A stretch of 54,439 bases of DNA from a virus. Each line of letters begins with the position of its first letter. Position 1 is the stretch's first letter. The notes under the pieces were generated by a model that was not told the origin of the DNA, made no database searches, and worked only from the letters and a program-made list of their open reading frames with translations. The stretch is taken from the IMG/VR virus record IMGVR_UViG_3300037087_000771, positions 1 through 54,439 of that record; one strand, given 5' to 3'. A program made the translations under genes and the position numbers. Of this stretch, positions 1,754 through 36,069 are shown one piece after another.

Positions 1754-1970
1754 TTCGATCCCTCCCGTAAACAAGCACTTCTACCAAGGTTACAAGTTTC
1801 GTGATGGTCTTGTTGACCTCCGACATATTGGTGTCGATACAGTCATGGAGTTCCTTGATGTTTTTCTCCTTTTTGATCAGGAGGTAGAACAACCCCGCCA
1901 GCACGACGAAGGCCATGATCAAGAACGGATCTTTCAAGTCTTTGACGATGGCAGTCAGGAGCTCGATCAT
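1740..1970 (-). CDS. Small membrane protein, one helix (candidate holin/antiholin)
   Basis: 76 residues, beginning MIELLTAIVKDLKDPFLIMA. A single hydrophobic helix (about 16-33, LIMAFVVLAGLFYLLI) is followed by KK and a charged helix with heptads (NKTITKLVTLVEVL). The ATG at 1970 overlaps the giant-gene stop by four bases, so it is coupled to that gene. This N-terminal helix plus coiled-coil shape is seen among small phage lysis proteins. Function is inferred from position in a membrane-protein cluster. Confidence 0.7.
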   Translation of the reverse strand: MIELLTAIVKDLKDPFLIMAFVVLAGLFYLLIKKEKNIKELHDCIDTNMSEVNKTITKLVTLVEVLVYGRDRNGNP

Positions 1971-2990: not shown

Positions 2991-5900
2991 ATCCGCTCCC
3001 GGATGTACTGGCCGGCATGGCTGATATTACCGTAGTCGCCGATCAGTTCCCGCGCCAGCTTTGCGGCCTTGTCTTCTCGGTTCGCAATGGCGTCAACCTC
3101 TTCCTTGCGCGAGGCTCCATAGATGATCTCTCCCCTTCCCAGTCGGTCCAGGAAATACCGATTCGCCGCCAGCCGCAGGATGTTTTCCCGCAAGGTCGAA
3201 AGCTTCTTGCTCATCGTCCACCACCGGGACAGGGCGTTCTTGCTCTTGCCGTCGAAGAAGTCCACGAGGCCCTTGACAGATTTGACATCTCCCAGTTCGG
3301 GGATGTCCATCGCCGTCATGCCGGACCCGACAACGCCGCGCTTAGTCAGCCCGGACAATTCGTCCATCAGGGTCTCGGATGCGTTCCCCCTGGATGCCGC
3401 CCATAGGTCCTTGAAGGCTTGTGTGAAATAATCCGTGATGATCTTCGGGTCGTAGGCGAGGGCGATGTCGAGGTCGCCCGACATATTGTTGATGTTGTAT
3501 TTGATGACCCGGAAGGGGTTCATAAGAATCCACTGTTTCCAAGCCGTCAGCATATTTTTCGACATCTTCGCCGGCAGGGAGTCCGTCAGGGCGGGCCGAA
3601 ACTCGTTGAGGGTCTTGGAGATCCCTTCCTTCACAACCCACTCTTCATCGCGGCCCCGCGCCAGGACTTGCCGCACGGCGTCCGGAAGGTTCTTGTGTCC
3701 GGCCAACACCTGGGCGAGCGCCTGGTCTGCAATGCTGTTTGTGAAATAGAACGTGCTCCCGGTTTCCGGTTTATGGGCAACGTACCCTTCGGGGATCATA
3801 TCGCGGTATGTGACCCAATCCTTGCCGACGACCTGCTTGATGAAGGCGTTCCTCGCCGCGATCGCCTTGAAAATCATGGCAGCGGGCATAGAGCCCGGCC
3901 CCTCGTGGTTGATCAGGTAGTTCAGCAGGGCGAACATCCGGGGATGAGGAACGGGGTCGAACTCGATCTCATCTTCTTTTGCCGCCCGGCGCTGCTCCTC
4001 CTGGTCAACGATGTGCTCGATGACATCGTCGAACTCCATCGGCAAGGAGCCCATGTCGTTCTCGGAAGTGAACAGTTTCGCGAGTTTCTGGAATCCCATC
4101 GCAATCTTCACCCGGAAGGGCAGAAGCGGGTCCGGATGGTCCGCCAGTGGGTCTCCGCCCTCCTCGTTGGTCTTCCGGTAGAAGGTCGCCATGTTCTGGT
4201 CTTTGGCCTCGGCCTCCAGTTGCGGCTTGATGTCAGCCAGGCGCTCGATCTCTTTCAGAGACTTGACCGTCTCGATCTGAGTCAATGCCTGGGAAATGAT
4301 CTCGAACTCGGATTCGACGTACTCGGTGTTGTAATCAAGCTGGGAGCCCTTCCGCCCGACCTGCCAGCCCTTTCGGTGGGTACGAACGTCCTGTGAAGAC
4401 ATCCCCCAATTCGGATTCTCCTTGTAATTCATGTAGGCGAGGACCTGGTGATGGAAGTAGGCCGCCGGGTCGTTGGCGACCTCCTTCTTCAGGAGTTTGT
4501 GTTGAATGAGCTGGTCGGTCAACGAGACCATGAAGGCGTTCCGCCTATCAAGGGCTTCCATTATTGCTGTGCTCCCCTCGGCGATGGCCCTGAAATGGTC
4601 GTAATCCTGCTGCACCTGATCCCCGTTCTTGTACCCGAACGGGAGCTCGGCCTCATCTTCGACGCCCAGGGTGCCGTTTTCGATGTCCCGGATCATGTCC
4701 GGCAAAAGAATGTTCATCGTGAACACGTCCCGGCCCTGGGGAGAGAGTCGTCCGATGAAGCCGGACAACTGCCGAACGGTTTCATCCTTCGCCCACGCGG
4801 GAACGTCCTGGAACTTGCGGAAGACATCGATGACCGCGCCGTCTGTTTCCGGTTCAAGGTGCTGGAAGTGCCGGGTGAAATGCTCCCAGCCGGTGACGAG
4901 GGCATCCTTAGCCCGGTCCTTGAGGGAGGCGTACTTGACCCCCTTGGCAGCCTTCAGGCGTTCGTTGACTTCGGGGAAAATGGAAGCGTTGTCGATGGCG
5001 TCCTTCTGGACGGAATAGAAAACCTTTCTCTCCTTACTATTTCTTACAGCCCCCCAAAGTTCCTTAATCTTTTCGTAGTGGTCTCCAGCCCTGTCTCGGA
5101 CAGTCGTGAACTCAAGCTGTGTGTTTTTCGCGAAGGAAAGCAGATTGTCAATATCAGCCTTCGTTAATGTCTTTTCGGCGTTATAGATCATGAAGTCTAC
5201 GGCGTTTCTCTTTTCCGCTTCACGAAGGATTTCCGTATGAATGGGTCGGAGTTTTGAGTAGTCGTCGATGGCGATTATTGCTACGGGTTGACGCTGTGCA
5301 GAAATCAGAACCATCCCCCCTTCTTTCATATACAAACGGCCAAACTCCTCAAATTCATTCTGGCTTCCGATGCTTTCGAGACCTTCCGGTGACTGGTCAA
5401 ATTTTCTCCCCAGTAGAGGTATTTCGTGAATTGCGGGTTCTCTCGGCGGAAGAGGTTCGCTTGACCACGTGTTATCGGAATATCTGGACGGCGTGATCGC
5501 AATAATCGGCATACTTTCGATCCCGGCGTCCGCGATAAGATCGCCGATGTTGGAGCTTACGCTCAGGTCGGCCTCGGACAATTTTGCTTGTCCGGAAGGG
5601 TGATTATGGACAGTCCATACCTTAGAAGCGCCCTCGATATTTAATATCTGTCCGGCGGCAAAATAAGCGTAGACTTGACTCTGGTTAGGGGCTCCGGTGG
5701 CGTGTAGGTTGACGGCAAGGATCTTTCCGGATTTGTCGGTAACGATTGTAACAAAGACTTCCTGTGCATCACGGAACAGGTTGTCGCGGGCAATAACGGC
5801 GGCGTCTTCCAGACTGGTTATTTTTCTGCGGGAGGATTTCCAGGTTCCGATGGGTTCACTTTTGACGGTGGGGAGAGTACCCCGTTCGGGAACATAGGGA

Positions 5901-8900
5901 AGCACCCTTCCTCCAGGGGCGGATATTTCCCGTTTATCATCGGTCCCCTGTCCGGCGGCATGGGCATTGTCAGCCCGCACCACCGCGGTTCCGGATACTT
6001 CTTGTCCATTGGATACCTCTTGATTATTGTTAAGCACTCTGCGGGGCTTTCTTGTCAACCCCTTTTCCGTAATCGCGAAAACCGGGAGATGTTCGTAGAC
6101 GGCAAGTCCTTGCTTCGCGCGGGGCTCCCCGTATACTTCATCAGGGGCCAGCTCCTTCTCTAAGGCGGATGCCAACTTCTTCTCGGTTGGAGCATCCTGC
6201 GGAATGTCTTCGCTCGGGACCTCCCCCTCGGTAATCCGATACGGCCTGTCGAGGCTTTCGTTCTTTGCGAAACGTTTCGCCCAGGCTTCACGCGAAGCCG
6301 CGTATCCGTCCCCGTCGATCATGCCCCCGTCCAGTTCAAAGCCGTAGTGCTCTGCCTGCCAGGTCCCGTCTTCGAGCTGCCCTTCGATGGTGATGATCTT
6401 GCCAGTCGGCTCGATCCGTTTCAAGGCCCTGGCAAGCACCCTGCAGCCGCCGTCGAGTGGCCCAGACTGGATAGGTCCGGCATCGGTGAGAATCGAGGCG
6501 ACCGCATCCTTCCTGAAAGCCTGCTTGATCTTGTCGCCGAGCCGCTTTGGTAATTCCAGGTCCGCGGTTCCAATGGCATACTTTTCACCTTTCGGATTAG
6601 ATTTTGCGTAGACCAGCCCTTTGCCGCCGCCGACCGCATCACGCGCTGCCCGGATCGTTGCTCCCGAAGAAATCACATTATCAACGAAAAAGACGTTATC
6701 CCCGTCGAGTGTTTCCGTACTGACCATACCGAACTCGACGGGTTTCATGGTGCGCCGCCCAGCTACGCGAGCATCCCGCTGACTTTGTCCAGCCTGCCGC
6801 TTGAGTACGTCTGCCACCCTGCTGCCCGTGATCGCTGCAATCCGTTCCGCGAGGGCGACGTTCGCTGCCGTATCCCCGGTATGTCCGGGTATCGGGACCA
6901 GTATCGCCGACTTTCTCGCCTCCTTGGGGATGAGTGCCGCCATTTCTTTGGCGACGCTATCCAACACGATCGGGTCCATTCCTTTGACTCCATAGGCATT
7001 GTCCCGGATAGTCTTTTCTTTGGCGCTGAGAGACGGCTTCACCCGCGGAGAGATATATGCATGGGCGGAAAGTGCCTCGTCATACGCCGTTACAGAAGGC
7101 TTTTCCTCACCTGCGCGTATCCAGTCAACGGGCACTGCTCCCCTCACCTTCGCGCCGTGTCCGATTGCAATGCTTTCGGCAAGGGTATCGCCCAAGTCCG
7201 TCCGGCCTCCAAAGTGCCGCTTGTTCCTGAGCTGGTCATTGTCAGGGACAAGGTTTTTCACCAGGACATCGACCGGGTAAATCGCGATCTCTTTCCCAGC
7301 GTAGGCCAGTCTACCGAACTGATGGGCCATGCCGGGGAAGAGGGAGAGAGAGACGGTCCCGTGAGACGATTGCAGAGACTTGGCAGTCCTGGCGCTGGTC
7401 GGCTTCAGCCCTTCCTTCATGACCGGGATGCTGGCGTCGGTCCCGTGATACATCCTGATCGTGGCGTATTTATTTTCCTTCAGCCAGGCATTGAGCCGGG
7501 CAATAGCCTTCTTTGTGGGCTCCCGGTAGGCGATGTCATGCCATGCCTCGTCTTCGCTGAAGTCAGTGATGGCGGTGTCCCCGAAATTGTCATATTTCCC
7601 GGTGCCGTACGCCTCGCCTCCCAGGCTTGAGTCCTGGATCTCCCTCTCGAATATCTTCCCGGACTGGAGTTCCCGCCCGATCATGCCCGCCGTCCTGATC
7701 CTCACGACCCGGTTGATGAAGTCCTGGATCTTCTGCCAAATCTGCGCGAGGACCGTCTGATTCGGCTGCGGCCCCTTTGCGAAATCCGCAAGCCAGTTTG
7801 CCCGGTTCTCTTCGTGGCTCAGGTCTCTATTCCATTTCCCTTCTTTCTGGATGCGGGCATTCAAGGTCGCCTTGTCCATTTCGGAAATGACACCCAGCTT
7901 TTCAAGCCAGTGAACAGATTCGTGGGAAACGGTCCATGGGGCGTTCGCGTTGTCCCGGACGATCCGGATGACTCCCCTACCCTGCGCGTCAAGGCCGTCG
8001 AACGCTCCGGCGATAAACTGGCCGGCGGCCAACCCCTTTTTGTATCCCGCATTCAGGGAGACGGTGTTCGGGGTGATCTCGGCAACACCGTAGATGTTTG
8101 CCTGCGCACCGCTCTTCAGGGTGACAGTGAAATTGTCGCCGTCCGGCGCGACCTGCTGCCCAGGGAAGATGGACTGGATCATCTCCATGTCCATCGTGCG
8201 TCTTCCGGTTCCGCCTTCCTTGCCAACGGAGTATTTTTCCTGTCCCGTCGGCGGGGATGCGCCCTTCATGGCCTTTTCATCGATGTCCTTGACGCCCTGG
8301 GGCACATAGGATTCCTGTTTCGCGTTGATAAATGCGTCCCTCTCCCCCGTCTCGGTAACGTGGATCAGGAACCTCTCGCCCATACCCCGAGCCTCATAAT
8401 GCCACGCCCCCCCCTTCCCGATTATCCTTTGCAGGAGGTTCCACTCAACCGGATCAACGGTCACAAAGGTTGCTCCGGCGGGCACCCAAAACTTCGTTAC
8501 GTTGTCGATCACGGTATAGGCTATCGGCTTCGTTTCGGGCGACTGGGGCTTCCCTCCGTCCAGAGCATTCAGGGCGTCGGGAGCGTTGTAGCTGGATGCT
8601 ATGCTGGGTTTGAGCTTACCGCTTTTTAGAAAACGGCTGAGGTCGGTCTTGGCACGGACGCCGATCGTCGTATCCTGGTGTGGGTAAACGATCCCGTCAT
8701 GAAACGACCACCCGTCTTTATCCGCCACATCTTCAAGGACGGGGACAACACCCTTATACTTATCGATTGGAATCCCGGTGGTGGGATCTCCGACAGATAC
8801 CCCTCGTGCGGCCATTTGCGCCTCGACTTCGCGCAGCTCTTTGTCGTTGGTCGCGAGCTCGTCCACTTTCGCCCAAGGGGTGTCTATGACACTCTGTAAT

Positions 8901-14900: not shown

Positions 14901-17900
14901 ATTCGATTCTGTTTTTTGTTCGATACTATCCGCTTGAGAAACGTGGAGTCCTTCCCGAGGATGTCATTTACCAGCCGGGAGCCAGCTCCGAAGTCGTAGA
15001 TATGAAAGAAAGTAAAGATGACCTGTTCAATTTCGTCTTTCGCCCTCTGGGAGGCCAGGTCCTGCAACCCATGGCCCCACTCATGGGCCATAGTCCCGTC
15101 GCCGTTGTCCCTGGTGAAGTTGATCGTTTTGACAGTGGGGAAGTATGCCGCTGCGGCCCCCTTCGCCTTGTGCCCCAGATTGGCAAATTGTACGGCCAGT
15201 TGTCTCCCCAGGCTCATGCCGATGTTGGGAGCGCCGATGGTTGCAGCCAGGTCCATGAAGGCATCGAACGCAGCCGGGATAACGCGGTTCCGCTCCTCCT
15301 GGTTGATCCAGCCCTCCTCGCCAAACCCGACGCCATTGAAACCGAACGGAGCCTGAAAGTCCTCTGTCTTTTTAAGTTCAACGCCCTTACGGTAATCGGC
15401 AAGGCCGGAACGTACCACTTCCTTGTTCCGCCCGCGCTTGTTGACGTTGATCTCCGACAGCAGGATATCGTTCTCGTCGGCAAGGAGATTCTGCCAGGAA
15501 TCGGTCAGGAAGTTGTAAAGGCCATTCGGTTTATCGACAATATCATGGTTGGCTATAATTCCGACGAGGCTGCGCCTCACTTCCATGTACGGCTCATATC
15601 TCCCGGTTTCATCTCGTAATCCATGGAGCACGGTGTCCTGTAACCGACCGATGATGTTCGTGATGGAGATCTGGCCATCGAAGGCGTCAACGATGGGCTG
15701 CATGGTTCTGCCGTACTCACTCGCCCATTCCTTGAGTTTATCGATAGAACCATCTCGGAAATTCAGCCAATGTTCGATCTTGTCCTCGATGGACTTCCCC
15801 GACATGTAACGCAACCGGTCCCGATTGCTGAGAAGGTGCTCCTTGAACGTCAAGAAATACTTCTGCACCATCTCTTTCGTCCGGGGGACACCCGGGGTCG
15901 CCCCTTCAGGATAATCGACCCCCCATATTTTCCCAGGGACCATCTCGTCGAGGATGATCTTCGCCGCGGACTTTGGTGACTTATCCTTGATCTTCTGGTT
16001 CAACTTCTCCGGGTCATAGACATAGCCGACGTTCTGGAATTCTCCCATCCCGGCTTTCTTCTCTTTGCGCTCCGCCGCCGCAGCCGCCTTTTGCTCTTTC
16101 TCCGCCTTCTCCTGATCGGTCAGCTTTCGGCGGGTCCGCGCTCCCCCCTCCCCTTTCCCCGTGTTCTCGTCGAGGTTGATCACTTCACCCTCTTCCGCCA
16201 TGTTTTCCGGAAGGATATTTCCTTCGTGTCTTACAGACCCCACACCATCCCATGAGTATTTCCAGCCTTCTTCCGGGATAGACACCGTCCCGCCTTCTTC
16301 CCATTCCGGGTGCTCTCTTGCAGCCTTGTTCCATGCGGCGTTTCGAGATTGCTGGTCTGCTTTAACGGGTTCGTCCATAGACGCCCGGTCATATCTGAGA
16401 GAAGATTCCGGCACACGCACTCTGAGGACAACAGGCGCCCCCCCGTGCTCGTCAACAGCCTCTTTTGCATAGTATTGGGCAAGCTCTCTCGTTTTTGCGA
16501 GGTAGGGGTTATTCAGCCCGTTCTTCCTTATGTCATCTAATAGGTTAGAACTCGTCCCGTGATAGGCTTCACGGATTGGGTGATCGATCTCTTTTTTATC
16601 CCTCTTTTCCTGAATGAACTGCTTGAGGTAAGGCCGGATTGCATCGCCGAATTGCGCGATCATCGTCGAGGCGAATTCCCAGAGCCCCTTCCCGACTTCG
16701 ATGAAGTGCGTGAACGCCGCCTCGAAATGGGGCTTCGCTTTCGCGTAGGTATCCTCGTCGATGCCGCCGGGGAGGGACTTCAGCGACGACCCTCCAAACA
16801 GTTCATAAAGACCCTTCAGGGCTTCGCCTGCCCCCAACACCCCCTCCTTGGCCACAGCGGACAGGATGTCATCGAGAGCCTTTGCCGGTTTTGCCGAGGG
16901 GATCTTTCCCGCAGCGCGATCCCTGGCAGCAGCAAATATGTTCTTGACAGCTTCATTTGTCGTCTTCGGCGCAGTTTCTTTCTTTTCCGGCATGTCGAGC
17001 AGTGCGTCGAGGTCTTCATTGGAAATCTCGGAGATCTCTTTCATGATGTCGGCCTTAGCGGCTTCTGGTTTCGTCAATTCTGTCAGTTCGGGATATTTGT
17101 CAAGTATGGCCTGTCGTGCTTTTGGATCATCGCCGGGGGCAGCATCGAGGTCGGATAGAAATCTCTTCGCATCCTCCTGCGAAAATTTCTCAGCCTGCGA
17201 AACCTTGTCCGCATCCTCCAAAAGGGCCGTGCGTTTTTTCTGGTATTCAAACTCAGCTTCTCGCGCATTCTCCGCCCTGAGCCGGTCACTTATTTCGGCC
17301 TGTTCGTTGCTCCTCTTGTCCACGGAGGTTTCCTTTTCCTCCACGGGTGGTTCTTTCCCCTCTGATTTTGAGCCTCTTACTCCGCCAGTTCCCGCCGCCT
17401 TGATATCCCCCGCGGGGGCTTCTCCGTCCTTCACGGGGGTTTCTTTCGTGGCCTTCCCCTCGAACATCTCTTTCGCAAGGCCGGGGTAATACTCTCTGAT
17501 GGTTTTTTCTAACGCCGGCCCTTGCTCTTCCAGCCCTCGGATTTCCTTCTTGATCTCCATTATCCGGGCCGCCAGATCATTGTACGTCGGGGTTCTCCCG
17601 AACCATGAATCCCGCCATGCTTCAGGACCGGCGTCTTCTGCATTCGACGTGGCCTTCGCGTCTTCTCCGAGCTGCTTGAGGGTGATCTCCTTGGCATCGA
17701 CCTTGCGCTGGATCTCCTGATATTTGGCGAGCCGCGCCTTGGTAGCCTCGATCTCTGCCGGGATTCCTTCGTATCTGGCCTTCCACTCATTCCTTTTCGC
17801 CCAGTAATCAGCGACCTCCGCCTCTGCCTCCTTGGTGATCAGATCCGTGGGCTTGCCCGTGCGTTTGTCGGAGTGCTGGGGGAGACGATTCAGCGCCGCC

Positions 17901-20900
17901 GTCACCTTCAGCTTCGAGACGTTCTTCTTGAATTTCTCCAAGTGTTCCACATCGTTCACGATCACAAACTTCCCGTCCATGGGAACGTCGATGATAACGT
18001 GGTTGGGTCCAGCGTCTTCAGTCTTGTTGTTCTCGTAGGCTGTCCGGGCGGCAAGGGCCTCATCGATATGTTCGAGCAGATACTTCTTGACGACCTTGGA
18101 CTTGGCCTCTTCTTCTTTGGTCTTTACCTCCGCCGAGGAAGGGGCTGGTTTCTCTTCCTTCTTCGCTTCCGATGCCTTGGTGGCTTCTTTCGTGGCCTTC
18201 GGGGCTCTCGCGCCGCCGGTTCCGGCTGCCTTGATGTCGGTTTTCTCCTCAGCTTTTGCAGGTGCGTCAGGATAGCTACCCTGGCCCCCGTGTTCTTTTT
18301 CCAGGAGGACTTCCCAGTATGCCTCTGCCGCGTCTATATCCGCGATAAGCGATTGCAACTTCTTGCCAAGTACGGGATTCTTTGCCGTCACGTTCGTGAC
18401 AATCGCCTTCTTTTCTTTCAGGGTGAGCGTGCTATACCCGCGTCCCCCCATACCGCTTCCACCCTTCCCAATCGAATGTTCGAGCCCGGCTTCCCGCTCG
18501 ATTGATGCGAATTCTTCTTCGTATTGGCTGATTAAATTCCTTCCTTCATCGGCGGTTCCCGCGTTCTTCATTTTTTCCGCGTAGGCTTCCGATGTTGGCT
18601 CAGGAGCGATGATCTCGGTGGGGGACAATACGTTGGTCGTCTCGAACGCCGCCAGGTCCTTCAGGGCGGCTATCCCTTTCAGGTCGTCGCCTTTGGTGCG
18701 GCTCCTTATTGCTTCAATCCCTGCCTTGATCGCCTCTTCTCGGGTATTGAATTCCGGACCATCGATAGCCGGGGCATGTCCACTGCCATCGTAGTCGCCA
18801 TACTTTTTCGAGATATGGACACCTATCCGGAATTTCCCATCGGGACCTTCCGCGATGTCGATACTCCCTGTCCGCCCAGATGCCTTCCCAAAAGGAATGG
18901 TTATCTTTTCCGGTTCAGTATAGACGCCATGGTCGTTGATATTGTGCCCTGCATCCCGGTATTTCTTGACATCGTCATCCAGTTCCTGCCTGGCCCTATT
19001 TCGTTTATCCGTAGGTTCATCGACCGCCGCCGGCCCCCTCTTCCCGCCAGTGCCCGCGGCTTTGATGTCAGTGGTGCCTTCGTCGGGCTGAATCATCTCG
19101 AAGATCGGCTTAGTGTCCCCAAAGAGATACTGGTGCATCGCCTCCTTGTCGCCCTGTGAAAGTTTCTTCGCGTTGGTCCCCTCGAACTGGAGAAGGTTAA
19201 ACTCGTCATTTTTTGCCGTCGCCTCGTTGATCGCCTCATCACGCAGCCAGGAGTCGGCGGCGGTGGCATCTTTTATCGCCAGGCGATTCGTCTCCGTGCG
19301 GATTCCGGGGGGCGTAAGGACGCGTCCGGTCAGGGTGGTAAGACCTTCGGACGCGGGGGTTGTCGGAGTTTCCCCTGCAGCGGACTTTTTGGCAGCCTTG
19401 AATTCATCTACAACCTGCTGAAGAATCGGATGATCCCATCCGCGCTCGTTTTGCTGCACATCTGAAAGCACAGACGCCAACTCGTAGATGTCGTCTTGGT
19501 CTTTCTCCGATACCTCAATCCCTTCTTTCTTCAGAAGTTCGACCGCTTTTAATCCAAGTTTCTCCTGTGCAGAAGCAAATGCGGTTTCGGCGTGGTGCAT
19601 GGCAAACCCTGATTCGGATCCCAGGATGTCCATTTCTTCGTCGATCTGTTTCTTTCGCGCCCGCGAAACGGCGTCCTTGGCGCTTTTCAGTTTATTTCTT
19701 TCCTCGATCAGCGCATCCATTTTTGGTTTATTTTTCGTGTCTATATCGTCTTTGACTGAATAGAGGTCATCCCACAAATTGCTGATATTCATAGGGGTAT
19801 AACTTTCGGGGAATTCAAAGTCTTCGGATATTTCTCCCCGCGAAATCTTCCCAATAAGATTGGCTATTTCACCTTCGTCAGCAGCGCCCTGCCCCACCGT
19901 TTCACCATGTTGAACCTCCACGGGGGTTTCTTTTGATCCCACGGAGGTTTTGTCCAATATCCCGAGCCGATACCGGGCGTAGGCACTCACGGTATCTTCC
20001 CCAGTGTATTCCCCAAGGACCGCAGCCTCCCCTCCTTCGGCAAATAACTTTTCAACCTTCGCCCGCACGAACTGCGGGGTTCCGGTCACCTGGGTGTCCC
20101 AGAGGTCGAACCTCTTTTTGTCCTCCGCCTTGACCTCTGCCGTGATGTCCAGGACCTTTCCCGAAGTTTCCCCGGTCACATTCAGCGGTCCTCTCGCGCC
20201 GCCCGTTCCCGCTATCTCCAATTTCTTGTCGATGCCCGCTAGGGCCTCGGGGGTGAGATCATCTTCGGTCTGGATGTTGACATCTCCCTCCGTCAAGATG
20301 TCCGTCGCCGTCAGGTTCTTCCGCTTTGCTGCCGGCTCGTCTCCCAGGAGAATGTCCCTCGCCGCACTCTTGGCTGGCTGCGGGGGCTTTCTGACCACGT
20401 CTCCCTTTGCAACGCCGCCGGTAGATTCGATATTTTCCGGGTCGAACCCGAAGGTAGTGGCCCTGGAGGCAACCGCGTTGGCCAGCCGGTTGAACTCTTT
20501 CCGCTGGGGCTCCGTCGCCTTGCCCGTCTCGATGAGTTTTTGTATCCCGACGGCTTTGTTGATGTCCTCCTGGTAGGTCAAATACTGCTGGTAGAGATCC
20601 GGGCTGATGTTCTTTTCATTGAATTCGTCCCTCAGAGAGACCCATCTTGCCACGTCTTCGCCTGTGGCGTCCTCCGTCTTTACCGCCGCGTCCAGCTTCA
20701 GGTATTCCTTGAACTTGCTCGTCATGTCGAAGTCTATGCCGCGCTTGTCCATCTCAGTCGCGAAGGCGTCCCTTGCCGTGGCCAGGTCCTTATCCTTCGG
20801 CCTCTGGTCCGACAGTTCCTGGGCGTGCTCGTGCATGGCCGGGAGGAATTCATTGGGGATCGAGCCGAACTTGTTTTCAGCGACAACGTCCTTCACGAGC

Positions 20901-22000
20901 TGGGCCGATGCCTTTGTGGCCATCTTGTCTTGGATGTGTCCCCCCACGAGTCCGGCACCGCCCATGCCCATAGTAAGAAGAAGGATGTCGGCAAAGATTT
21001 CCTTATGGGACTGCCGGAGGTCGTCGAAACTGGTCCATGAACGTTTTGTATCACCCGGAGAAAGCCCCATTTCCAGATCAAGATTGTGTTGCCACTGCTG
21101 CGAAACCATTTCCGTGGACTGTTCCGTCGCTTGTTCTGCCAGAAGTTTCCCAGCCGCTGACGCACCGTATTTGTCGAGTGTCTTCCCGATAACCGTCTTC
21201 GCGAGCTGTTTGCCGAATACGTTCTTGGCCGCTCCAAAAAACAACTCGAATCCGACCAGGTTTCCGATTGCCTCGGGGAGCGCCTCGGAAATACCCTGCT
21301 CGACCAGGAGTCCCTCGTTTTTGTCGTAGGCGGTTTTCCATTCTTCCGGGGACAGCACTCGCCCCACCGTCTTCATGCTGGTTTCATTGAGTTTTTGGTA
21401 TAACTGTTGGGCGGACATATCCTTTTGCATCCGGTATCCTGCCGCACCGCCTGCGGCCATCACTGCCGCGCCTCCGACAACTGGTGCCGCTGGACCCACT
21501 GCGAGACCCGCGGCGAGACTGGCCACCATCGACGCCCCCGAAAATCCTGCCTGTTGGGGGGCTCGTGTGATCGTTTGCGTGTCGATATCGGAAGGAAGGC
21601 CGAGCTTCGTAAGTGGTGCAATGACCACCTTATTGTCGGCGTATTTCTTCTGGAAATCCTCTGAATCCTGATTGGCCCTGTCGATGATCCTGGTCAGGAA
21701 AGAGTCCTTGTCGGCCACGGCCTCCCGTGAACCGCCACGGATCATACTCGCGGTTGCACCGGCAATCTGCAAGGGGGTTCTGATCACAGCCTCGCCGACC
21801 GCGCCGACAGTTTCGGCGATCTCCCCCGGCGACGCCAGCTCGTAACGAGCCGGAGCCGTGGATGCTTGTTTTATCTCGACCGGTTTCGAGATAGTGTCGA
21901 AGAAATCCTTCGAGACAGGAGAGGGAATGTCCTTCGTAATGTCATCGTAAAAGGACTTTGACAGCGACAGAGGACTTCTTACGGACGGATTCAGCTCCAT
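1967..22000 (-). CDS. Giant polyvalent (DarB-like) multidomain virion protein, 6,677 aa
   Basis: About 37% of the window. Domains in order (approximate residues): Gly/Ala-rich hydrophobic segment 147-190 and another at 333-353; helical region with AGTGG-type linkers 590-1540; helical module 1755-1800 then ADP-ribosyltransferase-like YHGT 1811-1935; LPD1-type zincin HEWGH 2305; N6-adenine methyltransferase 2680-3050 (DPATGANG, NVPF); SNF2 helicase 3500-4110; second zincin HESVH 4692; second YHGT module 4849; phosphoribosyltransferase VDNVISSGAT 5101; Cys-His-Asp module 5184-5240; RadC/JAMM HNHPSG 5463; helical C-terminus with LPD38-like end 6340-6677. Related proteins in P1 (DarB) and Bcep22-like phages are packaged and injected. 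AAGGAG precedes the ATG. Expected role: protect incoming DNA and remodel host processes; this is inference from the families. Confidence 0.9.
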   Translation of the reverse strand: MELNPSVRSPLSLSKSFYDDITKDIPSPVSKDFFDTISKPVEIKQASTAPARYELASPGEIAETVGAVGEAVIRTPLQIAGATASMIRGGSREAVADKDSFLTRIIDRANQDSEDFQKKYADNKVVIAPLTKLGLPSDIDTQTITRAPQQAGFSGASMVASLAAGLAVGPAAPVVGGAAVMAAGGAAGYRMQKDMSAQQLYQKLNETSMKTVGRVLSPEEWKTAYDKNEGLLVEQGISEALPEAIGNLVGFELFFGAAKNVFGKQLAKTVIGKTLDKYGASAAGKLLAEQATEQSTEMVSQQWQHNLDLEMGLSPGDTKRSWTSFDDLRQSHKEIFADILLLTMGMGGAGLVGGHIQDKMATKASAQLVKDVVAENKFGSIPNEFLPAMHEHAQELSDQRPKDKDLATARDAFATEMDKRGIDFDMTSKFKEYLKLDAAVKTEDATGEDVARWVSLRDEFNEKNISPDLYQQYLTYQEDINKAVGIQKLIETGKATEPQRKEFNRLANAVASRATTFGFDPENIESTGGVAKGDVVRKPPQPAKSAARDILLGDEPAAKRKNLTATDILTEGDVNIQTEDDLTPEALAGIDKKLEIAGTGGARGPLNVTGETSGKVLDITAEVKAEDKKRFDLWDTQVTGTPQFVRAKVEKLFAEGGEAAVLGEYTGEDTVSAYARYRLGILDKTSVGSKETPVEVQHGETVGQGAADEGEIANLIGKISRGEISEDFEFPESYTPMNISNLWDDLYSVKDDIDTKNKPKMDALIEERNKLKSAKDAVSRARKKQIDEEMDILGSESGFAMHHAETAFASAQEKLGLKAVELLKKEGIEVSEKDQDDIYELASVLSDVQQNERGWDHPILQQVVDEFKAAKKSAAGETPTTPASEGLTTLTGRVLTPPGIRTETNRLAIKDATAADSWLRDEAINEATAKNDEFNLLQFEGTNAKKLSQGDKEAMHQYLFGDTKPIFEMIQPDEGTTDIKAAGTGGKRGPAAVDEPTDKRNRARQELDDDVKKYRDAGHNINDHGVYTEPEKITIPFGKASGRTGSIDIAEGPDGKFRIGVHISKKYGDYDGSGHAPAIDGPEFNTREEAIKAGIEAIRSRTKGDDLKGIAALKDLAAFETTNVLSPTEIIAPEPTSEAYAEKMKNAGTADEGRNLISQYEEEFASIEREAGLEHSIGKGGSGMGGRGYSTLTLKEKKAIVTNVTAKNPVLGKKLQSLIADIDAAEAYWEVLLEKEHGGQGSYPDAPAKAEEKTDIKAAGTGGARAPKATKEATKASEAKKEEKPAPSSAEVKTKEEEAKSKVVKKYLLEHIDEALAARTAYENNKTEDAGPNHVIIDVPMDGKFVIVNDVEHLEKFKKNVSKLKVTAALNRLPQHSDKRTGKPTDLITKEAEAEVADYWAKRNEWKARYEGIPAEIEATKARLAKYQEIQRKVDAKEITLKQLGEDAKATSNAEDAGPEAWRDSWFGRTPTYNDLAARIMEIKKEIRGLEEQGPALEKTIREYYPGLAKEMFEGKATKETPVKDGEAPAGDIKAAGTGGVRGSKSEGKEPPVEEKETSVDKRSNEQAEISDRLRAENAREAEFEYQKKRTALLEDADKVSQAEKFSQEDAKRFLSDLDAAPGDDPKARQAILDKYPELTELTKPEAAKADIMKEISEISNEDLDALLDMPEKKETAPKTTNEAVKNIFAAARDRAAGKIPSAKPAKALDDILSAVAKEGVLGAGEALKGLYELFGGSSLKSLPGGIDEDTYAKAKPHFEAAFTHFIEVGKGLWEFASTMIAQFGDAIRPYLKQFIQEKRDKKEIDHPIREAYHGTSSNLLDDIRKNGLNNPYLAKTRELAQYYAKEAVDEHGGAPVVLRVRVPESSLRYDRASMDEPVKADQQSRNAAWNKAAREHPEWEEGGTVSIPEEGWKYSWDGVGSVRHEGNILPENMAEEGEVINLDENTGKGEGGARTRRKLTDQEKAEKEQKAAAAAERKEKKAGMGEFQNVGYVYDPEKLNQKIKDKSPKSAAKIILDEMVPGKIWGVDYPEGATPGVPRTKEMVQKYFLTFKEHLLSNRDRLRYMSGKSIEDKIEHWLNFRDGSIDKLKEWASEYGRTMQPIVDAFDGQISITNIIGRLQDTVLHGLRDETGRYEPYMEVRRSLVGIIANHDIVDKPNGLYNFLTDSWQNLLADENDILLSEINVNKRGRNKEVVRSGLADYRKGVELKKTEDFQAPFGFNGVGFGEEGWINQEERNRVIPAAFDAFMDLAATIGAPNIGMSLGRQLAVQFANLGHKAKGAAAAYFPTVKTINFTRDNGDGTMAHEWGHGLQDLASQRAKDEIEQVIFTFFHIYDFGAGSRLVNDILGKDSTFLKRIVSNKKQNRIAAVKEYVSELFEQAVRKETDYYSTAQQMDADYTARSHEMWARAFEAYIYDTLPGKNNYLVNDFVSAGRVGGKAGVGAKLVYPAGKERETFNETIKYFLDGLEWDENGHPSLKDEYVSIKTANELLLQTKLKELLAEVEDRYNAIWASDPSNDGYYWYRYDATSFGPMMQPDGYAGHDKGYTSEGQNGTGAVAYLTQLHPDDILDYKLSNIQYEGENPTYISKERGGINGSLQEDGAEPLEEVPARPDGSPDEGGDVREGDGAGSADGVGGARGPGKQRGPVGGVEGGSAEGVYPSPAGNYQITDPTLNDPKSVPVRFSLNLAAVKLLNLIESENRLASSGTVSFGEAPPGGWTEADKVPDNQRTIQPSINEKDILAQYSGWGGMSELFAYEPTAAWAGKAELLKAELNDDEVRDAASSSTSAYYTPVPIGTFMWKLAQRLGFTNGVVLDPATGANGLFLGTMPSDLAQGTALQGIEMDGVSARIATLLYGLASIETKPFQDVKKPNNRFDLTITNVPFENFSPTDLKHNKGGYRLHNYFINKMLNLTAPGALSMMITTSNTLDAVGPHLAEFAGKAQLVGAIRLPSGIYSSTQVATDILVFRKNIEGGKFVGVPAEEWTTTGTHESTGLTINNYFLKHPEMVAGKLEKITGRYGNESLRVVGEGDLQSNLERLAASFPDKIVEREAVKEAKSIDDIISAPGTIKEGGAYINDKGEVCEKLDGEEEKLPVATAGEQKKAEIVRLYVRILDQIRTLLRAQKTETDAKVIKEEQVKLKKWYDLFVKTYGPVNAIKNSAMYNEYTDSAWVLALEEHDPDTNKVTKLSDIFTKNITAFAARPDRADTDHDALAMALDEFGYPNLEYMARLRSSDVESVRLGVADKIVENPETGFLETIDEYLSGNVKRKLAVAREMATSNPEYARNVALLEAAQPAEIPQHRITARIGASWIDPAHLADFVRAKMNMRNDLHTVFNFNPVSNEWSMTFKGEEEYRKTKGHRGFSENKAETQRMIAAAKRSIEATTVWGTQRMDFFELMKCALMGKRPQVTFTVDRKQYLDEVATQAAEVKLQDIQSEFGRWLFAEAGRSDEAVKRFNDLINTSVPMNADGSHLTFPGKGMWMLTPKEKEALGVTDALTFYPHQMNATWKYLKNGNLYLGHEVGTGKTVTMGLIAMEAKRLRGKKKVLYVTLNDSTMGQAVQEIKNLYPMANILPVRVSTNEQRKQRSLQKIALNDFDIAIMRQQDLDRIGLSPESERVFIEEELLELREILEEAKKEGARILEQDIQVQIHALEAKLSAPGVHDEAKRKNLFFDDLGIDLMIVDEAHKYKNIPYATRLTRITGLNPTGSPTAKDFFRKTQYLNAQFPKKDGIVLASGTALSNSIAEMYNIQRMLQPQEVKRQGVWSFDRWIANYGDMGSQLEWDGARGQYKVITTNRRIVNAGRLLATAYQNVDSVRAKDTPVKRPIIRGGEPQRVKVQPNQYVEDYKKIILERCAAIEADPKNAEFEGVPDNMLRIISNMSKVAIDQRLDRRYANTEMQQDSKIATASKIMYRRWQEEAKHKGVQLVFADLGIPGKYSDKFKYKTEDETSQLAPEDLAIYNEEMFEHESASAGFNTYEGLKKELVKLGIPENQIAFIHDADHSNKEKKAANLRSLFKKVNAGDIRVLIGSTSKAGTGVNIQGRVSDIHHLDVWWNYSAWEQRNGRGIRAGNLYARDGMPGTYIWNYVTETTVDATRWDKVFAKGKVLNAVLGGDVNLDVIEDISDETMSAKMMAAEASGDPLMSTQATLLQKVQGLRFEQAAHLDVVRRSRMDLAAIPGRIEALEKCIADYQRSRSVMGKVTAVRFIGDDRTLVLEKHGKEISEALEKAVMVDTHSWTENKKAALLVFGSHTETEVTEEVEGKDGEKKEKKVKKYTFVPLPAKADITGKERDPYGRRLLISGSILSSDRNLADIQAKQGKDGIVTTVDIKANVSRTVTEYLSYLNHSEESAKGAIAELKSNAPKLQSVIDTPWAKVDELATNDKELREVEAQMAARGVSVGDPTTGIPIDKYKGVVPVLEDVADKDGWSFHDGIVYPHQDTTIGVRAKTDLSRFLKSGKLKPSIASSYNAPDALNALDGGKPQSPETKPIAYTVIDNVTKFWVPAGATFVTVDPVEWNLLQRIIGKGGAWHYEARGMGERFLIHVTETGERDAFINAKQESYVPQGVKDIDEKAMKGASPPTGQEKYSVGKEGGTGRRTMDMEMIQSIFPGQQVAPDGDNFTVTLKSGAQANIYGVAEITPNTVSLNAGYKKGLAAGQFIAGAFDGLDAQGRGVIRIVRDNANAPWTVSHESVHWLEKLGVISEMDKATLNARIQKEGKWNRDLSHEENRANWLADFAKGPQPNQTVLAQIWQKIQDFINRVVRIRTAGMIGRELQSGKIFEREIQDSSLGGEAYGTGKYDNFGDTAITDFSEDEAWHDIAYREPTKKAIARLNAWLKENKYATIRMYHGTDASIPVMKEGLKPTSARTAKSLQSSHGTVSLSLFPGMAHQFGRLAYAGKEIAIYPVDVLVKNLVPDNDQLRNKRHFGGRTDLGDTLAESIAIGHGAKVRGAVPVDWIRAGEEKPSVTAYDEALSAHAYISPRVKPSLSAKEKTIRDNAYGVKGMDPIVLDSVAKEMAALIPKEARKSAILVPIPGHTGDTAANVALAERIAAITGSRVADVLKRQAGQSQRDARVAGRRTMKPVEFGMVSTETLDGDNVFFVDNVISSGATIRAARDAVGGGKGLVYAKSNPKGEKYAIGTADLELPKRLGDKIKQAFRKDAVASILTDAGPIQSGPLDGGCRVLARALKRIEPTGKIITIEGQLEDGTWQAEHYGFELDGGMIDGDGYAASREAWAKRFAKNESLDRPYRITEGEVPSEDIPQDAPTEKKLASALEKELAPDEVYGEPRAKQGLAVYEHLPVFAITEKGLTRKPRRVLNNNQEVSNGQEVSGTAVVRADNAHAAGQGTDDKREISAPGGRVLPYVPERGTLPTVKSEPIGTWKSSRRKITSLEDAAVIARDNLFRDAQEVFVTIVTDKSGKILAVNLHATGAPNQSQVYAYFAAGQILNIEGASKVWTVHNHPSGQAKLSEADLSVSSNIGDLIADAGIESMPIIAITPSRYSDNTWSSEPLPPREPAIHEIPLLGRKFDQSPEGLESIGSQNEFEEFGRLYMKEGGMVLISAQRQPVAIIAIDDYSKLRPIHTEILREAEKRNAVDFMIYNAEKTLTKADIDNLLSFAKNTQLEFTTVRDRAGDHYEKIKELWGAVRNSKERKVFYSVQKDAIDNASIFPEVNERLKAAKGVKYASLKDRAKDALVTGWEHFTRHFQHLEPETDGAVIDVFRKFQDVPAWAKDETVRQLSGFIGRLSPQGRDVFTMNILLPDMIRDIENGTLGVEDEAELPFGYKNGDQVQQDYDHFRAIAEGSTAIMEALDRRNAFMVSLTDQLIQHKLLKKEVANDPAAYFHHQVLAYMNYKENPNWGMSSQDVRTHRKGWQVGRKGSQLDYNTEYVESEFEIISQALTQIETVKSLKEIERLADIKPQLEAEAKDQNMATFYRKTNEEGGDPLADHPDPLLPFRVKIAMGFQKLAKLFTSENDMGSLPMEFDDVIEHIVDQEEQRRAAKEDEIEFDPVPHPRMFALLNYLINHEGPGSMPAAMIFKAIAARNAFIKQVVGKDWVTYRDMIPEGYVAHKPETGSTFYFTNSIADQALAQVLAGHKNLPDAVRQVLARGRDEEWVVKEGISKTLNEFRPALTDSLPAKMSKNMLTAWKQWILMNPFRVIKYNINNMSGDLDIALAYDPKIITDYFTQAFKDLWAASRGNASETLMDELSGLTKRGVVGSGMTAMDIPELGDVKSVKGLVDFFDGKSKNALSRWWTMSKKLSTLRENILRLAANRYFLDRLGRGEIIYGASRKEEVDAIANREDKAAKLARELIGDYGNISHAGQYIRERMIPFYSWLEINAPRYVRLFRNLKDEGGGIGAMGGVLAWKTTKLAVKASALMGLVMLWNAAFFPDEEDELQEAGREQLHMILGRRTDGSIITLRFQGALSDALSWFGMSNPVEQVKKVASGTKGVGDLAKDAVKAAPLRLFQGFRPEPKLLYETLSGQSFFPDPLHPRPIRDTAEHILRTFSLDRIYNQVSGKPKQGGTWATQMYRDIQSLALNEADPGEQAYYTSRKYIFDWLDKQGKEKPAAMPTNRSNSLYYYKQALKFGDFDAAEKYLKKYQDMGGKLHDVQGSIRRVHPLASLRLADRYKFKASLSPEQQETLSVATAWYKKHYVDTYREQRMRMSQ
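5450..5850 (-). other. Domain: RadC/JAMM metal-binding module of the giant protein
   Basis: TVHNHPSGQAKLSEADLSVS fits the JAMM rule HxH-x7-S-x2-D exactly, preceded by DAAVIARDNLFRDAQEVFVT and a strand ILAVNLHATG, as in RadC proteins. JAMM domains bind zinc and can be peptidases or deubiquitinase-like; in phage polyvalent proteins the substrate is unknown. Confidence 0.85.
6270..6475 (-). other. Domain: possible papain-like Cys-His-Asp module of the giant protein
   Basis: LDGGCRVLARALKRI, then AEHYGFELDGGMIDGDGY. A Cys at the start of a helix, a His beginning a strand, and an Asp after a turn is the order of papain-like thiol enzymes, and small stand-alone phage proteins share it. This is a pattern match only. 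Confidence 0.4.
6560..7470 (-). other. Domains: second ART-like module and phosphoribosyltransferase of the giant protein
   Basis: TIRMYHGTDASIPVMKEGLK starts an ART-like module (near 7452) ending AKVRGAVPVDWIR. It is followed by a type I phosphoribosyltransferase with SAILVPIPGHTGDTAANVAL and the PRPP loop VFFVDNVISSGATIRAA (near 6698). PRTases occur in polyvalent proteins, where nucleotide or NAD-linked chemistry is suspected but unproven. Confidence 0.72.
7650..8150 (-). other. Domain: second zincin of the giant protein
   Basis: ANIYGVAEITPNTVSLNAGY, GVIRIVRDNANAPWTVSHES and then VHWLEKLG carry HESVH (near 7925), an HExxH zinc site. A likely third ligand is Glu in LSHEENRANWLADFA about 40 residues later. 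It is a different subfamily from the HEWGH domain. It precedes the second YHGT module. Confidence 0.7.
9680..11515 (-). other. Domain: SNF2-family helicase of the giant protein
   Basis: Motif Q-like FYPHQMNATWKYL, Walker A HEVGTGKT (near 11436), Walker B DEAH (near 10946), motif III ASGTALSN, motif V STSKAGTGVNIQGR and motif VI EQRNGRGIRAG (near 9815). All helicase motifs look intact, so ATP-driven movement on DNA is expected. Between Walker A and B is a long charged helix (EELLELREILEEAKKEGARI). Confidence 0.88.
12840..13960 (-). other. Domain: N6-adenine methyltransferase of the giant protein
   Basis: SGWGGMSELF, then a conserved SAYYTPVPIGTFMW, SAM-binding motif I LDPATGANGLFLG (near 13556) and a motif IV-type NVPFENF (near 13358). 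The usual catalytic motif is NPPY/F; here it is NVPF. The same order and motifs occur in DarB-like phage and plasmid proteins, where this domain is joined to an SNF2 helicase. Confidence 0.8.
14700..15480 (-). other. Domain: LPD1-type zinc metallopeptidase of the giant protein
   Basis: FGFNGVGFGEEGW, a helix AFDAFMDLAATIG, AVQFANLGHKAKGAAAAYFP, TVKTINFTRDNGDGTMAHEW and then GHGLQDLA. HEWGH (about 15069-15085) is the HExxH zinc motif; a third ligand is likely Glu in SHEMWARAFEAY about 100 residues later. The whole series is the LPD1 signature of polyvalent proteins. Expected to cleave a protein target, possibly a host defence factor or the giant protein itself. Confidence 0.75.
16190..16580 (-). 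other. Domain: first ADP-ribosyltransferase-like module of the giant protein
   Basis: REAYHGTSSNLLDDIRKNGL opens a ~125-residue module with a helix, TRELAQYYAKEAV, a strand APVVLRVRVPESS, and a closing GSVRHEGNILPENM. The 'YHGT...I...GL' opening is typical of NAD-binding ART-fold domains in toxins and polyvalent proteins. It is preceded by AKAKPHFEAAFTHFIEVGKG...RPYLKQFIQE, a helical segment common before such domains. Catalytic Glu placement cannot be fixed by eye. Confidence 0.6.
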
Positions 22001-26085: not shown

Positions 26086-26097
26086 CGTTCTTCTCCT

Positions 26098-27747: not shown

Positions 27748-27750
27748 CGT

Positions 27751-28293: not shown

Positions 28294-28300
28294 GCTTCAC

Positions 28301-30720: not shown

Positions 30721-30722
30721 AA

Positions 30723-32861: not shown

Positions 32862-32869
32862 GGCCTACC

Positions 32870-36059: not shown

Positions 36060-36069
36060 TTCTCCCTCC

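What the first reader, a model, noticed from the sequence alone, without database searches (positions are those of the whole stretch)
1967..22000. A single 6,677-residue phage protein with nine or more enzymatic or enzyme-like modules
The reading frame is uninterrupted over 20 kb and joins ART-like (x2), zincin (x2), N6-adenine methyltransferase, SNF2 helicase, phosphoribosyltransferase, possible papain-like and RadC/JAMM modules. P1 DarB and the giant Bcep22-type proteins are known relatives, but those I recall are much shorter (a few thousand residues at most). This looks like an extreme injected effector, combining DNA methylation/remodelling with protein and nucleotide chemistry. Catalytic motifs of the helicase, both zincins and the JAMM domain look intact, which argues against decay.
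Basis: partly seen in the sequence, partly recalled or inferred. Interest (0 to 1): 0.9.

Follow-up and report, generated by a model that had tools for sequence, protein, structure and literature searches.

The report
Giant modular phage takeover protein
A bacterial virus carries one 6,677-amino-acid gene that strings together DNA-protecting and other enzyme modules, belongs to an already known class of proteins thought to be injected with viral DNA, and contains a repeated short linker signal and an unnamed end domain shared with dozens of related viruses.

Summary
Window 1967-22000 (-) is one ATG-started frame of 6,677 aa; three other contigs carry orthologous frames of 6,813, 6,506 and 5,581 aa, so it is not an assembly join. 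Most modules are under purifying selection. It is of a known kind: phage polyvalent proteins (Iyer 2017) with the DarB methyltransferase/SNF2 pair, in a Bcep22-like late cluster. The nine cultured relatives measured reach 4,985 aa; 7,694 aa (huge phages) and 12,242 aa (a plasmid) are published, so size alone is not new. MTase, SNF2 and RadC are firm; two zincins well supported; PRTase moderate (DN, not DD); both ARTs and the papain-like module unconfirmed. Best reading: a capsid-packaged, injected chain of effectors; cutting at the linkers is inferred, untested.

The parts
1967..22000 (-). Giant polyvalent protein gene, 6,677 aa
   Evidence: orthologues; dN/dS; SD
20231..22000 (-). N-terminal region aa 1-590, conserved in the orthologues; weak similarity (27%, E 2e-5) to the Klebsiella phage LASTA DarB-like protein; holds the only two 19-mers of the protein with Kyte-Doolittle >= 1.6 (aa 158-176, 335-353)
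20186..20212 (-). Linker motif copy 1, AGTGGARGP (aa 597-605)
19031..19069 (-). Linker motif copy 2, DIKAAGTGGKRGP (aa 978-990)
18200..18238 (-). Linker motif copy 3, DIKAAGTGGARAP (aa 1255-1267)
17369..17407 (-). Linker motif copy 4, DIKAAGTGGVRGS (aa 1532-1544)
14078..14107 (-). Degenerate motif-like stretch ADGVGGARGP (aa 2632-2641) in the linker before the MTase; not found in the other three orthologues by the same patterns
16181..16618 (-). Putative ART 1 (aa 1795-1940); profile support weak; present in G002, absent from G001 and G003
14831..15433 (-). Zincin 1 (aa 2190-2390), HEWGH at aa 2306, conserved in G001-G003
   Evidence: with LPD1, NCBIfam CLCA_X 7.1e-23 below cut-off
14600..14824 (-). 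LPD1 domain (aa 2393-2467)
   Evidence: Pfam PF18796 4.5e-11, above cut-off
12851..13783 (-). N6-adenine methyltransferase (aa 2740-3050), motif NVPF
   Evidence: Pfam N6_Mtase 1.6e-7 above cut-off; phrog_10089
9251..11653 (-). SNF2/SF2 ATPase (aa 3450-4250): GTGKT, DEAH, QRNGRGIR
7601..8188 (-). Zincin 2 (aa 4605-4800), HESVH at aa 4693
7106..7573 (-). Putative ART 2 (aa 4810-4965), YHGT motif only; no profile hit; absent from G001 and G003
6551..7048 (-). PRTase-like module (aa 4985-5150), VDNVISSGAT
   Evidence: NCBIfam PyrR 2.6e-4, below cut-off
6206..6523 (-). Possible Cys-His-Asp (papain-like) module (aa 5160-5265), unconfirmed
5396..5827 (-). RadC/JAB (JAMM) domain (aa 5392-5535), HNHPSG...S..D
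   Evidence: Pfam RadC 2.2e-11 above cut-off; predicted fold matches 2qlc
1970..4903 (-). Conserved C-terminal domain 'CT' (aa 5700-6677), mostly helical in the model

Best explanation
It is a phage polyvalent protein: a late-expressed, capsid-packaged chain of effector modules, ejected with the DNA of a Bcep22-like phage. Proposed steps: (1) the chain is made with the structural proteins, and its constant C-terminal domain and/or N-terminal region put it in the capsid (inferred). (2) It leaves through the tail as a string of small folded units, as proposed for N4 virion RNA polymerase (analogy). (3) In the host, the methyltransferase-SNF2 pair tracks on the entering DNA and modifies or shields it against type I/III restriction, as proposed for DarB (family knowledge). 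(4) The zincins cut flexible linkers to free the other modules (RadC, PRTase-like and uncharacterised ones); the repeated AAGTGG(A/K)RGP linker motif is the best candidate recognition site (inferred, untested; about 0.4 on its own). (5) Between phages, modules are swapped as cassettes while the C-terminal domain stays (shown). The stated confidence is for the packaged-and-injected antirestriction core, not for step 4.
For: Late-gene context: portal, MCP (53% to Itty13/Pavtok), terminases, tail fibre and head closure. phrog_10089 (DarB-like) matches the MTase-SNF2 core; 79 of 50,697 phage records match its helicase part. The DarB-like gp69 of Bcep22-like JC1 is in virions, 51 unique peptides (PMC9144972, passages); P1 DarB is packaged by an N-terminal signal (PMC9024508, abstract and passages). 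Window-G002 dN/dS: SNF2 0.03, CT 0.07, MTase 0.08. Modularity: among 54 proteins collected by their CT, HMMs built from the window clade find MTase in 9, RadC in 15, PRTase-like in 3 and the ART-like modules in 2; module gain/loss and unequal dS between modules. Motif: 4 AGTGGxR against 0.0015 expected in block shuffles of the window protein; of 14 hits to the looser GxGGxRG in the four orthologues 13 are AGTGG; Arg follows in 15 of 15 AGTGG copies, with varied codons; low-order surroundings in the four orthologues; AGTGG occurs in no other frame of the four contigs; a further giant gene with a mostly unrelated N-terminus (L089) carries it too.
Against: No virion proteomics for this phage; it is uncultured. 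No cleavage evidence. The motif is confined to one small clade: of the other 38 proteins of at least 1,500 aa, 36 show no 5-mer three times and 2 show one, as shuffles do, although several have zincins. In L089 two of three copies are not in notably low-order windows (percentiles 0.26, 0.19) and one copy reads AGTKG. Host and targets are unknown. CT fails the LPD38 sequence profile (positive control) and has no significant PDB fold match.
Confidence: 0.8

Rival explanations
1. Packaged and injected as proposed, but not proteolytically separated: the repeated motif is a binding or spacer element (for example an AT-hook-like DNA contact through K-R-G-P, or a docking site for a capsid protein), and the zincins act on host proteins. 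The AT-hook likeness is recalled, not tested.
For: The motif is basic and Gly-rich and mostly sits in low-order linkers. Relatives with zincins lack it. N4 virion RNAP carries an MPTase yet is packaged uncleaved (Iyer 2017 section 8).
Against: The strong likeness among copies within each protein and their place between separable modules is also what cutting sites would show.
Confidence: 0.4
2. The protein acts in the cell that makes it (superinfection exclusion or assembly), not after injection.
For: Late-gene position fits action during assembly too.
Against: Virion presence of the homologous JC1 gp69 and of P1 DarB (PMC9144972, PMC9024508, passages); the MTase-SNF2 pair is a known antirestriction module.
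Confidence: 0.1
3. Assembly error or decaying fusion of several genes.
For: None found. Some regions have raised dN/dS in single comparisons (0.33-0.81), explained below.
Against: Orthologous single frames in three other contigs, a segment 100% identical to G002 in a further metagenome record (L093), purifying selection.
Confidence: 0.01
4. The repeated linker motif is a DNA-level recombination site that lets modules be exchanged.
For: It lies next to exchanged segments.
Against: Codons within the motif vary: all four Ala, Gly and Thr codons are used among 15 copies, so protein rather than DNA appears to be conserved.
Confidence: 0.1

Closest known systems
Phage polyvalent proteins (Iyer et al. 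2017, PMC5512222)
   Same: Many disparate enzyme modules in one chain in a late gene cluster; zincin MPTases, MTase-SNF2 pair, PRTase-like module, LPD1
   Different: RadC in a phage protein (section 33 of the survey lists RadC only for conjugative elements, though section 16 mentions prophages); unnamed C-terminal domain; repeated linker motif
DarB-like proteins of Bcep22-like phages (JC1 gp69, SopranoGao, LASTA, Atu_ph08, PEp14, Mwe-JY07, POI1126, PBC5)
   Same: MTase - intermediate segment - SNF2 core at about 30% identity; related capsid protein in those listed; LASTA also has weak N-terminal similarity
   Different: 2,849-4,985 aa as annotated; by my HMMs 8 of 8 share only the MTase-SNF2 core; a single PLxRFG motif in 7 of 8; no repeated linker motif
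P1 DarB
   Same: MTase-SNF2 antirestriction protein carried in the virion (PMC9024508; Iyer 2017 section 14)
   Different: About 250 kDa; sequence not compared here
N4 virion RNA polymerase gp50 (PMC12633501, passages)
   Same: Giant ejected chain with a large C-terminal domain, proposed beads-on-a-string passage
   Different: RNA polymerase payload; similarity of the C-terminal domains only suggestive (VIA Z 4.6, below the best hit, an unrelated Cas12m2 at Z 6.0)
LPD38 (PF18857)
   Same: Lies near the C-terminus of JC1 gp69 (4195-4401 of 4,515, table passage); Foldseek hits include one LPD38-named protein (E 6e-7)
   Different: Pfam LPD38 profile matches 0 of 27 records of this clade and its relatives, though it matches JC1

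Membership tests
Phage polyvalent proteins (Iyer 2017) | Several biochemically disparate domains in one polypeptide | tested here: met
   N6_Mtase, RadC, LPD1, ResIII and Helicase_C above Pfam cut-off
Phage polyvalent proteins (Iyer 2017) | Encoded near late virion genes | tested here: met
Phage polyvalent proteins (Iyer 2017) | Zincin-like MPTase domain(s) | tested here: met
   By motif only: two HExxH modules conserved in relatives; no MPTase profile above cut-off and no fold shown
Phage polyvalent proteins (Iyer 2017) | Delivered in the virion | not testable with these tools
   Only homologous JC1 gp69 has MS data
DarB-like antirestriction proteins | MTase fused to SNF2 ATPase | tested here: met
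   phrog_10089 6.5e-134 and 1.4e-208 on the two halves
DarB-like antirestriction proteins | LPD36 domain before the MTase (Iyer 2017 section 14) | tested here: inconclusive
   No LPD36 hit in the Pfam scan of that half; the presence of an LPD36 model in the library was not checked
DarB-like antirestriction proteins | Protects incoming DNA from type I restriction | not testable with these tools
   no experiment
DarB-like antirestriction proteins | NPP(Y/F) adenine MTase motif | tested here: inconclusive
   Motif is NVPF, the same in the three orthologues and in L042
RadC-like JAB | Pfam RadC profile, HxHPxG..S..D motif, RadC fold | tested here: met
   2.2e-11 above cut-off; VHNHPSGQAKLSEAD; 2qlc TMt 0.81 for the RadC part of a model that is poor elsewhere
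ART-PolyVal / ADP-ribosyltransferases | ART-PolyVal profile | tested here: not met
   0 of 4 records at E <= 10; the same profile hits 3 of 16 payloads of relatives
ART-PolyVal / ADP-ribosyltransferases | Other ART/PARP profile | tested here: inconclusive
   ART1 PARP E 0.011 below cut-off; ART2 none
PRTase superfamily | PRTase profile | tested here: inconclusive
   PyrR models 2.6e-4 and 0.022, below their cut-offs; Pfam 0.04; tblastn to an annotated PRTase E 7e-3
PRTase superfamily | Catalytic DD motif | tested here: not met
   VDNVISSGAT in window, L002 and L003
Papain-like peptidase | Profile or fold match | tested here: inconclusive
   YunG-like E 0.089 below cut-off; poor model there
LPD38 | Pfam PF18857 match | tested here: not met
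   0 of 27 records at E <= 10; positive control JC1 8.1e-37, the other 4 of 5 cultured records negative
LPD38 | Same fold | tested here: inconclusive
   46 BFVD hits at E <= 1e-3, TM at most 0.52; 11 of the 46 named as large polyvalent protein associated domain, one of these LPD38

The most novel reading that the evidence does not exclude
The chain is a self-processing polyprotein with its own punctuation: AAGTGG(A/K)RGP is the cut site of a resident metallopeptidase (zincin 1, or the JAMM/RadC domain cutting after Gly-Gly), so that a phage delivers many separate effectors as one packaged polypeptide and gains new ones by inserting 'motif-module' cassettes upstream of a constant C-terminal packaging domain.
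Probability: 0.25. Interest if true: 0.8.

Novelty: new variant of a known kind. Interest (0 to 1): 0.5.

Why it matters
Polyvalent proteins have been predicted since 2017 to be cut into working parts by their own metallopeptidases. A conserved, repeated 12-13-residue motif placed between modules gives a concrete site to test. The C-terminal domain, found on 54 proteins with different payloads, offers a handle to find many more such carriers and, if it is a packaging signal, a way to load proteins into phage heads. Payloads attached to it include RadC, GGDEF, Strawberry-notch helicase, zeta toxin and anti-CBASS Acb1, suggesting counter-defence delivered at the moment of entry.

Tried and rejected
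Rejected: assembly join (orthologous frames in other contigs). Rejected: decay (dN/dS). Judged unlikely: DNA-level recombination signal as the reason for motif conservation (varied codons). Tried without result: viral-contig scan with aa 1-1667, none confirmed, although one search then found this region in 3 of 6 related records, so that scan misses relatives; C-terminal region against 50,697 phage records, none at E <= 0.01; phmmer against PDB with ART1, ART2, the PRTase-like and papain-like regions and MTase-SNF2: no useful hit; MTase-SNF2 gave 0 at E <= 0.01, so this route misses true relatives; viral-contig scans with ART2 and ART1 confirmed only G002; ART1 against ART2 by BLASTP, E 0.09; search for CT in G041 and G042, none, both without the 3' end of the gene.

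Structure: the model of aa 4600-5540 was poor (mean pLDDT 43.9), so ART2, PRTase-like and papain-like folds could not be judged; only its RadC part gave matches at E <= 0.001. The C-terminal model (pLDDT 74.9) had no PDB Foldseek hit at E <= 0.001. VIA's best row is Cas12m2 (Z 6.0, 97 residues); N4 gp50 (Z 4.6, 165 residues) and DEV ejection protein gp72 (Z 3.7) are also below the level that the tool calls meaningful. hhalign of CT with C-termini of cultured DarB-like proteins hit the same CT block (about 550-795) in three comparisons, E 0.023, 0.058 and 0.1, which share sequences and are not independent; eight N-terminal controls gave 0.24 or worse and the other six C-termini 0.17-0.44: suggestive only. 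A test for membrane helices was weak: 2 of 4 orthologues have a Kyte-Doolittle segment in the N-terminal region; 6 of 37 complete proteins of at least 1,500 aa do.

Dropped rows: L026 and L051 as duplicates of L007 and L050 before counting. L030 and L033 have stops within the matched region and were kept. L041 and L046 have the same RadC coordinates and may be one phage; both were counted. Twelve of the 54 proteins were left out of the structure alignment A2: L005, L030, L031, L033, L046, L050, L054, L057, L060, L066, L068 and L070. Of the 54, payloads of 16 were scanned with Pfam, chosen to fit the tool's size limit; five of these 16 (L036, L038, L040, L064, L065) were cut at the start of the locus.

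Full report
The frame. The finding's coordinates are exact: 1967..22000 on the minus strand, 6,677 aa, ATG, no internal stop, with AAGGAG 8 nt upstream. The window is a 54,439-base IMG/VR record classed linear. Scanning 2.9 million viral contigs with the C-terminal 978 aa found six relatives. Three carry the same giant gene as one frame: 6,813 aa (G001/L002, 69 kb), 6,506 aa (G002/L003, 83 kb) and 5,581 aa (G003/L004, 64 kb). Another contig, L093, is 100% identical to G002 over 7.5 kb. An assembly artefact is thus excluded in practice.

Selection. Nei-Gojobori dN/dS on the codon alignment, window against G002, is 0.03 (SNF2), 0.07 (CT), 0.08 (MTase), 0.15 (zincin 1) and 0.22 (zincin 2); 20 of 22 measurable regions lie at 0.03-0.25, the exceptions being ART1 (0.33, with dS only 0.09) and aa 5265-5390 (0.59). 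Against G001, zincin 2 gives 0.42, aa 5265-5390 0.28 and aa 1150-1255 0.81 (there the segments are hardly alignable); against G003 three short, gapped matches give 0.37-0.46. Some dS values are saturated, three beyond measure. The pattern argues against decay. dS differs sharply by module (window-G002: ART1 0.09, ART2 and PRTase-like 0.14, SNF2 0.18, N-terminus 0.70, zincin 1 0.88), so the gene is a mosaic.

Modules. Pfam: LPD1, N6_Mtase, RadC, ResIII and Helicase_C above cut-off, DEAD at it, SNF2-rel_dom below it. PHROG 10089 (DarB-like antirestriction, 4,647 positions) matches the MTase-SNF2 core with E 6.5e-134 and 1.4e-208 in the two halves searched. The two HExxH motifs (aa 2306, 4693) are kept in the three orthologues, and the second in 8 of 8 rows of A3 that cover it. 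The zincin 1-LPD1 region also matches 19 phage records at E <= 0.01. RadC keeps HNHPSG...S..D, and its part of an otherwise poor model matches 2qlc with TM 0.81 of the target. The PRTase-like module rests on PyrR models (2.6e-4, below cut-off) and an annotated PRTase in tblastn (E 7e-3); its motif reads VDN, not VDD. Neither ART is confirmed, nor the papain-like module. In pairwise alignment, both ART-like modules are present in G002 and missing from G001 and G003; PRTase-like, papain-like and RadC modules are missing from G003.

Context. Upstream on the same strand lie large unknown genes, then tail fibre, head closure, major capsid protein, portal and terminases; downstream lies an endolysin-like gene. 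The capsid protein is 50-53% identical to those of Itty13, Pavtok, PEp14, DC1, LASTA and JC1. I looked at the giant gene in 10 of the 79 phage records that match the helicase part. Annotated lengths: PBC5 2,849, VvAW1 3,640, SopranoGao 4,369, LASTA 4,433, JC1 4,515, POI1126 4,841, Atu_ph08 4,877, PEp14 4,914, Mwe-JY07 4,985 aa; Itty13 has an unannotated frame of at least 4,109 aa. In SopranoGao, PEp14 and JC1 it is followed by lysis genes. By my HMMs, 8 of 8 tested cultured proteins share only the MTase-segment-SNF2 core with the window, although tblastn also finds a weak N-terminal match in LASTA. JC1 gp69 was found in CsCl-purified virions with 51 unique peptides (PMC9144972, passages). P1 DarB is directed into the head by its N-terminal 30 residues (PMC9024508, abstract and passages).

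The repeated linker motif. Reading the chain showed a motif, consensus (D/E)IKAAGTGG(A/K)RGP, with AGTGG at aa 597, 982, 1259 and 1536. The orthologues have it at 600, 996, 1210, 1583 (G001), 604, 1000, 1133, 1402 (G002) and 598, 953, 1294 (G003). The 15 copies were picked by AGTGG, so those five letters are alike by construction; not by construction are Arg two residues on (15 of 15), Pro (14), Gly (13) and the upstream Lys (13), and third codon positions use all four Ala, Gly and Thr options. Conservation drops outside a 12-13-residue core. A looser pattern, GxGGxRG, hits 14 places in the four proteins, 13 of them AGTGG, the other being aa 2634 of the window. Many copies are orthologous to each other and so not independent. 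Block shuffles of the window protein give 0.0015 copies of AGTGGxR against 4 observed. Copies in the four proteins sit in stretches poor in order-promoting residues (permutation P 0.004-0.03). The modules between the copies differ among phages: the segment that follows copy 2 in the window precedes copy 2 in the other three, and one segment has no match in G003. AGTGG occurs in no other frame of the four contigs as held; looser patterns gave two chance-like hits. In the viral collection a back-translated KAAGTGGxRGP pattern hit only five contigs: three known, L093, and L089. L089 lies in a further giant frame of 4,030 aa that runs off its contig, with three copies (one AGTKG) and HEWGH, although most of its N-terminal region is unrelated; two of its three copies are not in notably low-order windows. 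The same repeat test finds no such repeat in the other 38 proteins of at least 1,500 aa: 36 give no 5-mer three times and two give a single one, as shuffles do. I read the motif as a protein-level signal of one phage clade that separates modules. Cleavage by zincin 1, present in all five clade members seen (window, L002, L003, L004, L089), is my favoured use; binding is the alternative. The Gly-Gly and the JAMM domain make RadC a second candidate, but G003 lacks RadC and keeps the motif.

The C-terminal domain. An alignment of seven relatives (A1) recovered 46 viral loci, six of them known, and 9 genome loci; the named hosts or bins are Desulfobacula (two), Magnetominusculus, another Nitrospirae bin, Denitrovibrio, Geobacteraceae, Desulfuromonadaceae, a Bacteroidetes and a Flavobacteriales bin. 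After removing two duplicates and adding the window, 54 proteins remain; 41 are complete, 451-6,813 aa, median 3,633. All 54 carry the domain by construction of the search; what is informative is that in the 51 whose 3' end is seen it ends within 144 aa of the C-terminus, whereas upstream content varies. HMMs from the window clade find MTase in 9, zincin 1 in 9, zincin 2 in 11, RadC in 15, PRTase-like in 3 and ART-like modules in 2 of 54; more distant versions would be missed. Pfam at E <= 1e-4 on 16 payloads lists RadC 7, Strawberry-notch helicase 4, GGDEF 4, SNF2 4, LPD1 3, ART-PolyVal 3, 2'-5' RNA ligase 2, and Pribosyltran, InPase, ddrB-ParB, zeta toxin and Acb1 one each. For the domain itself, Pfam scans of seven members gave nothing convincing apart from the intein of L005 (best other E 0.0032); no PHROG or NCBIfam hit lies in it, and there is no match in 50,697 phage records at E <= 0.01. 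Its AlphaFold model (pLDDT 74.9) matches 46 viral predicted structures at E <= 1e-3, 11 of them named 'large polyvalent protein associated domain', one of these LPD38, yet the LPD38 sequence profile matches 0 of 27 records while it works on JC1. I call it an LPD38-like but unnamed domain, probably for packaging or ejection (inferred). In 297 genomes of the phylum of the Desulfobacula bin, 2 matched, the bin itself among them: it is rare in genomes.

Literature. Iyer et al. 2017 (abstract, outline, sections 8, 9, 14, 16, 24, 31, 32, 33 and passages read) define the class, report 2-15 domains, a 12,242-aa plasmid member, and propose that MPTases process the chain. [quoted passage not shown] the present phages are an exception to section 33. 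Al-Shayeb et al. 2020 mention phage proteins up to 7,694 aa (passage). The N4 gp50 preprint PMC12633501 (passages) proposes beads-on-a-string ejection. Passages of PMC9503650 repeat that ARTs are common in virion-embedded polyvalent proteins. My ten paper searches showed me no report of the linker motif or this C-terminal domain; the library is open-access only, I opened six papers in part, and no search was aimed at the motif's letters.

Verdict. The protein is real, intact and unusually long, but of a known kind. What is new is the repeated linker signal, the delimitation of a constant C-terminal domain with exchangeable payloads, and RadC in phage members.

Noticed in passing
L005 locus 10001-13834 (alignment A1, about columns 711-1024): Intein-like insert of about 315 aa inside the conserved C-terminal domain of the 3,222-aa relative; one member of A1 hits LAGLIDADG_3 (7.2e-5) and Hint (0.028), by the insert's place this one.
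   Followed up: partly
G030:C1:22254-22535 (record of L067; L099) and G011:C1:12283-12546 (record of L038): Anti-CBASS Acb1-like domain above the Pfam cut-off inside giant frames of 3,839 and 5,357 aa; a paper search for Acb1 with 'polyvalent protein' gave 0 papers.
   Followed up: partly
window 51203-52405 (-): DNA methyltransferase-like gene (phrog_67) between the large terminase and portal genes.
   Followed up: no
Pseudomonas phage Itty13 MW460249.1, L087 5041-17367 (+): An unannotated frame of at least 4,109 aa covering the DarB-like match; the record annotates antisense frames there instead.
   Followed up: partly
Sinorhizobium phage PBC5 AF448724.1, L088 9454-19086 (+): The frame of the annotated 2,849-aa DNA methylase extends upstream to 3,210 aa, next to another long frame of 2,185 aa; the giant gene may be split in this older record.
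   Followed up: no
window 22023-37740 (-): Ten genes upstream of the giant gene, seven of ten without any PHROG hit at E <= 0.001, one of them 1,031 aa long; possible further virion or ejected proteins.
   Followed up: no
A4 payloads (16 loci): GGDEF domains in 4 of 16 payloads and Strawberry-notch helicases in 4 of 16: second-messenger chemistry may be a common cargo.
   Followed up: no
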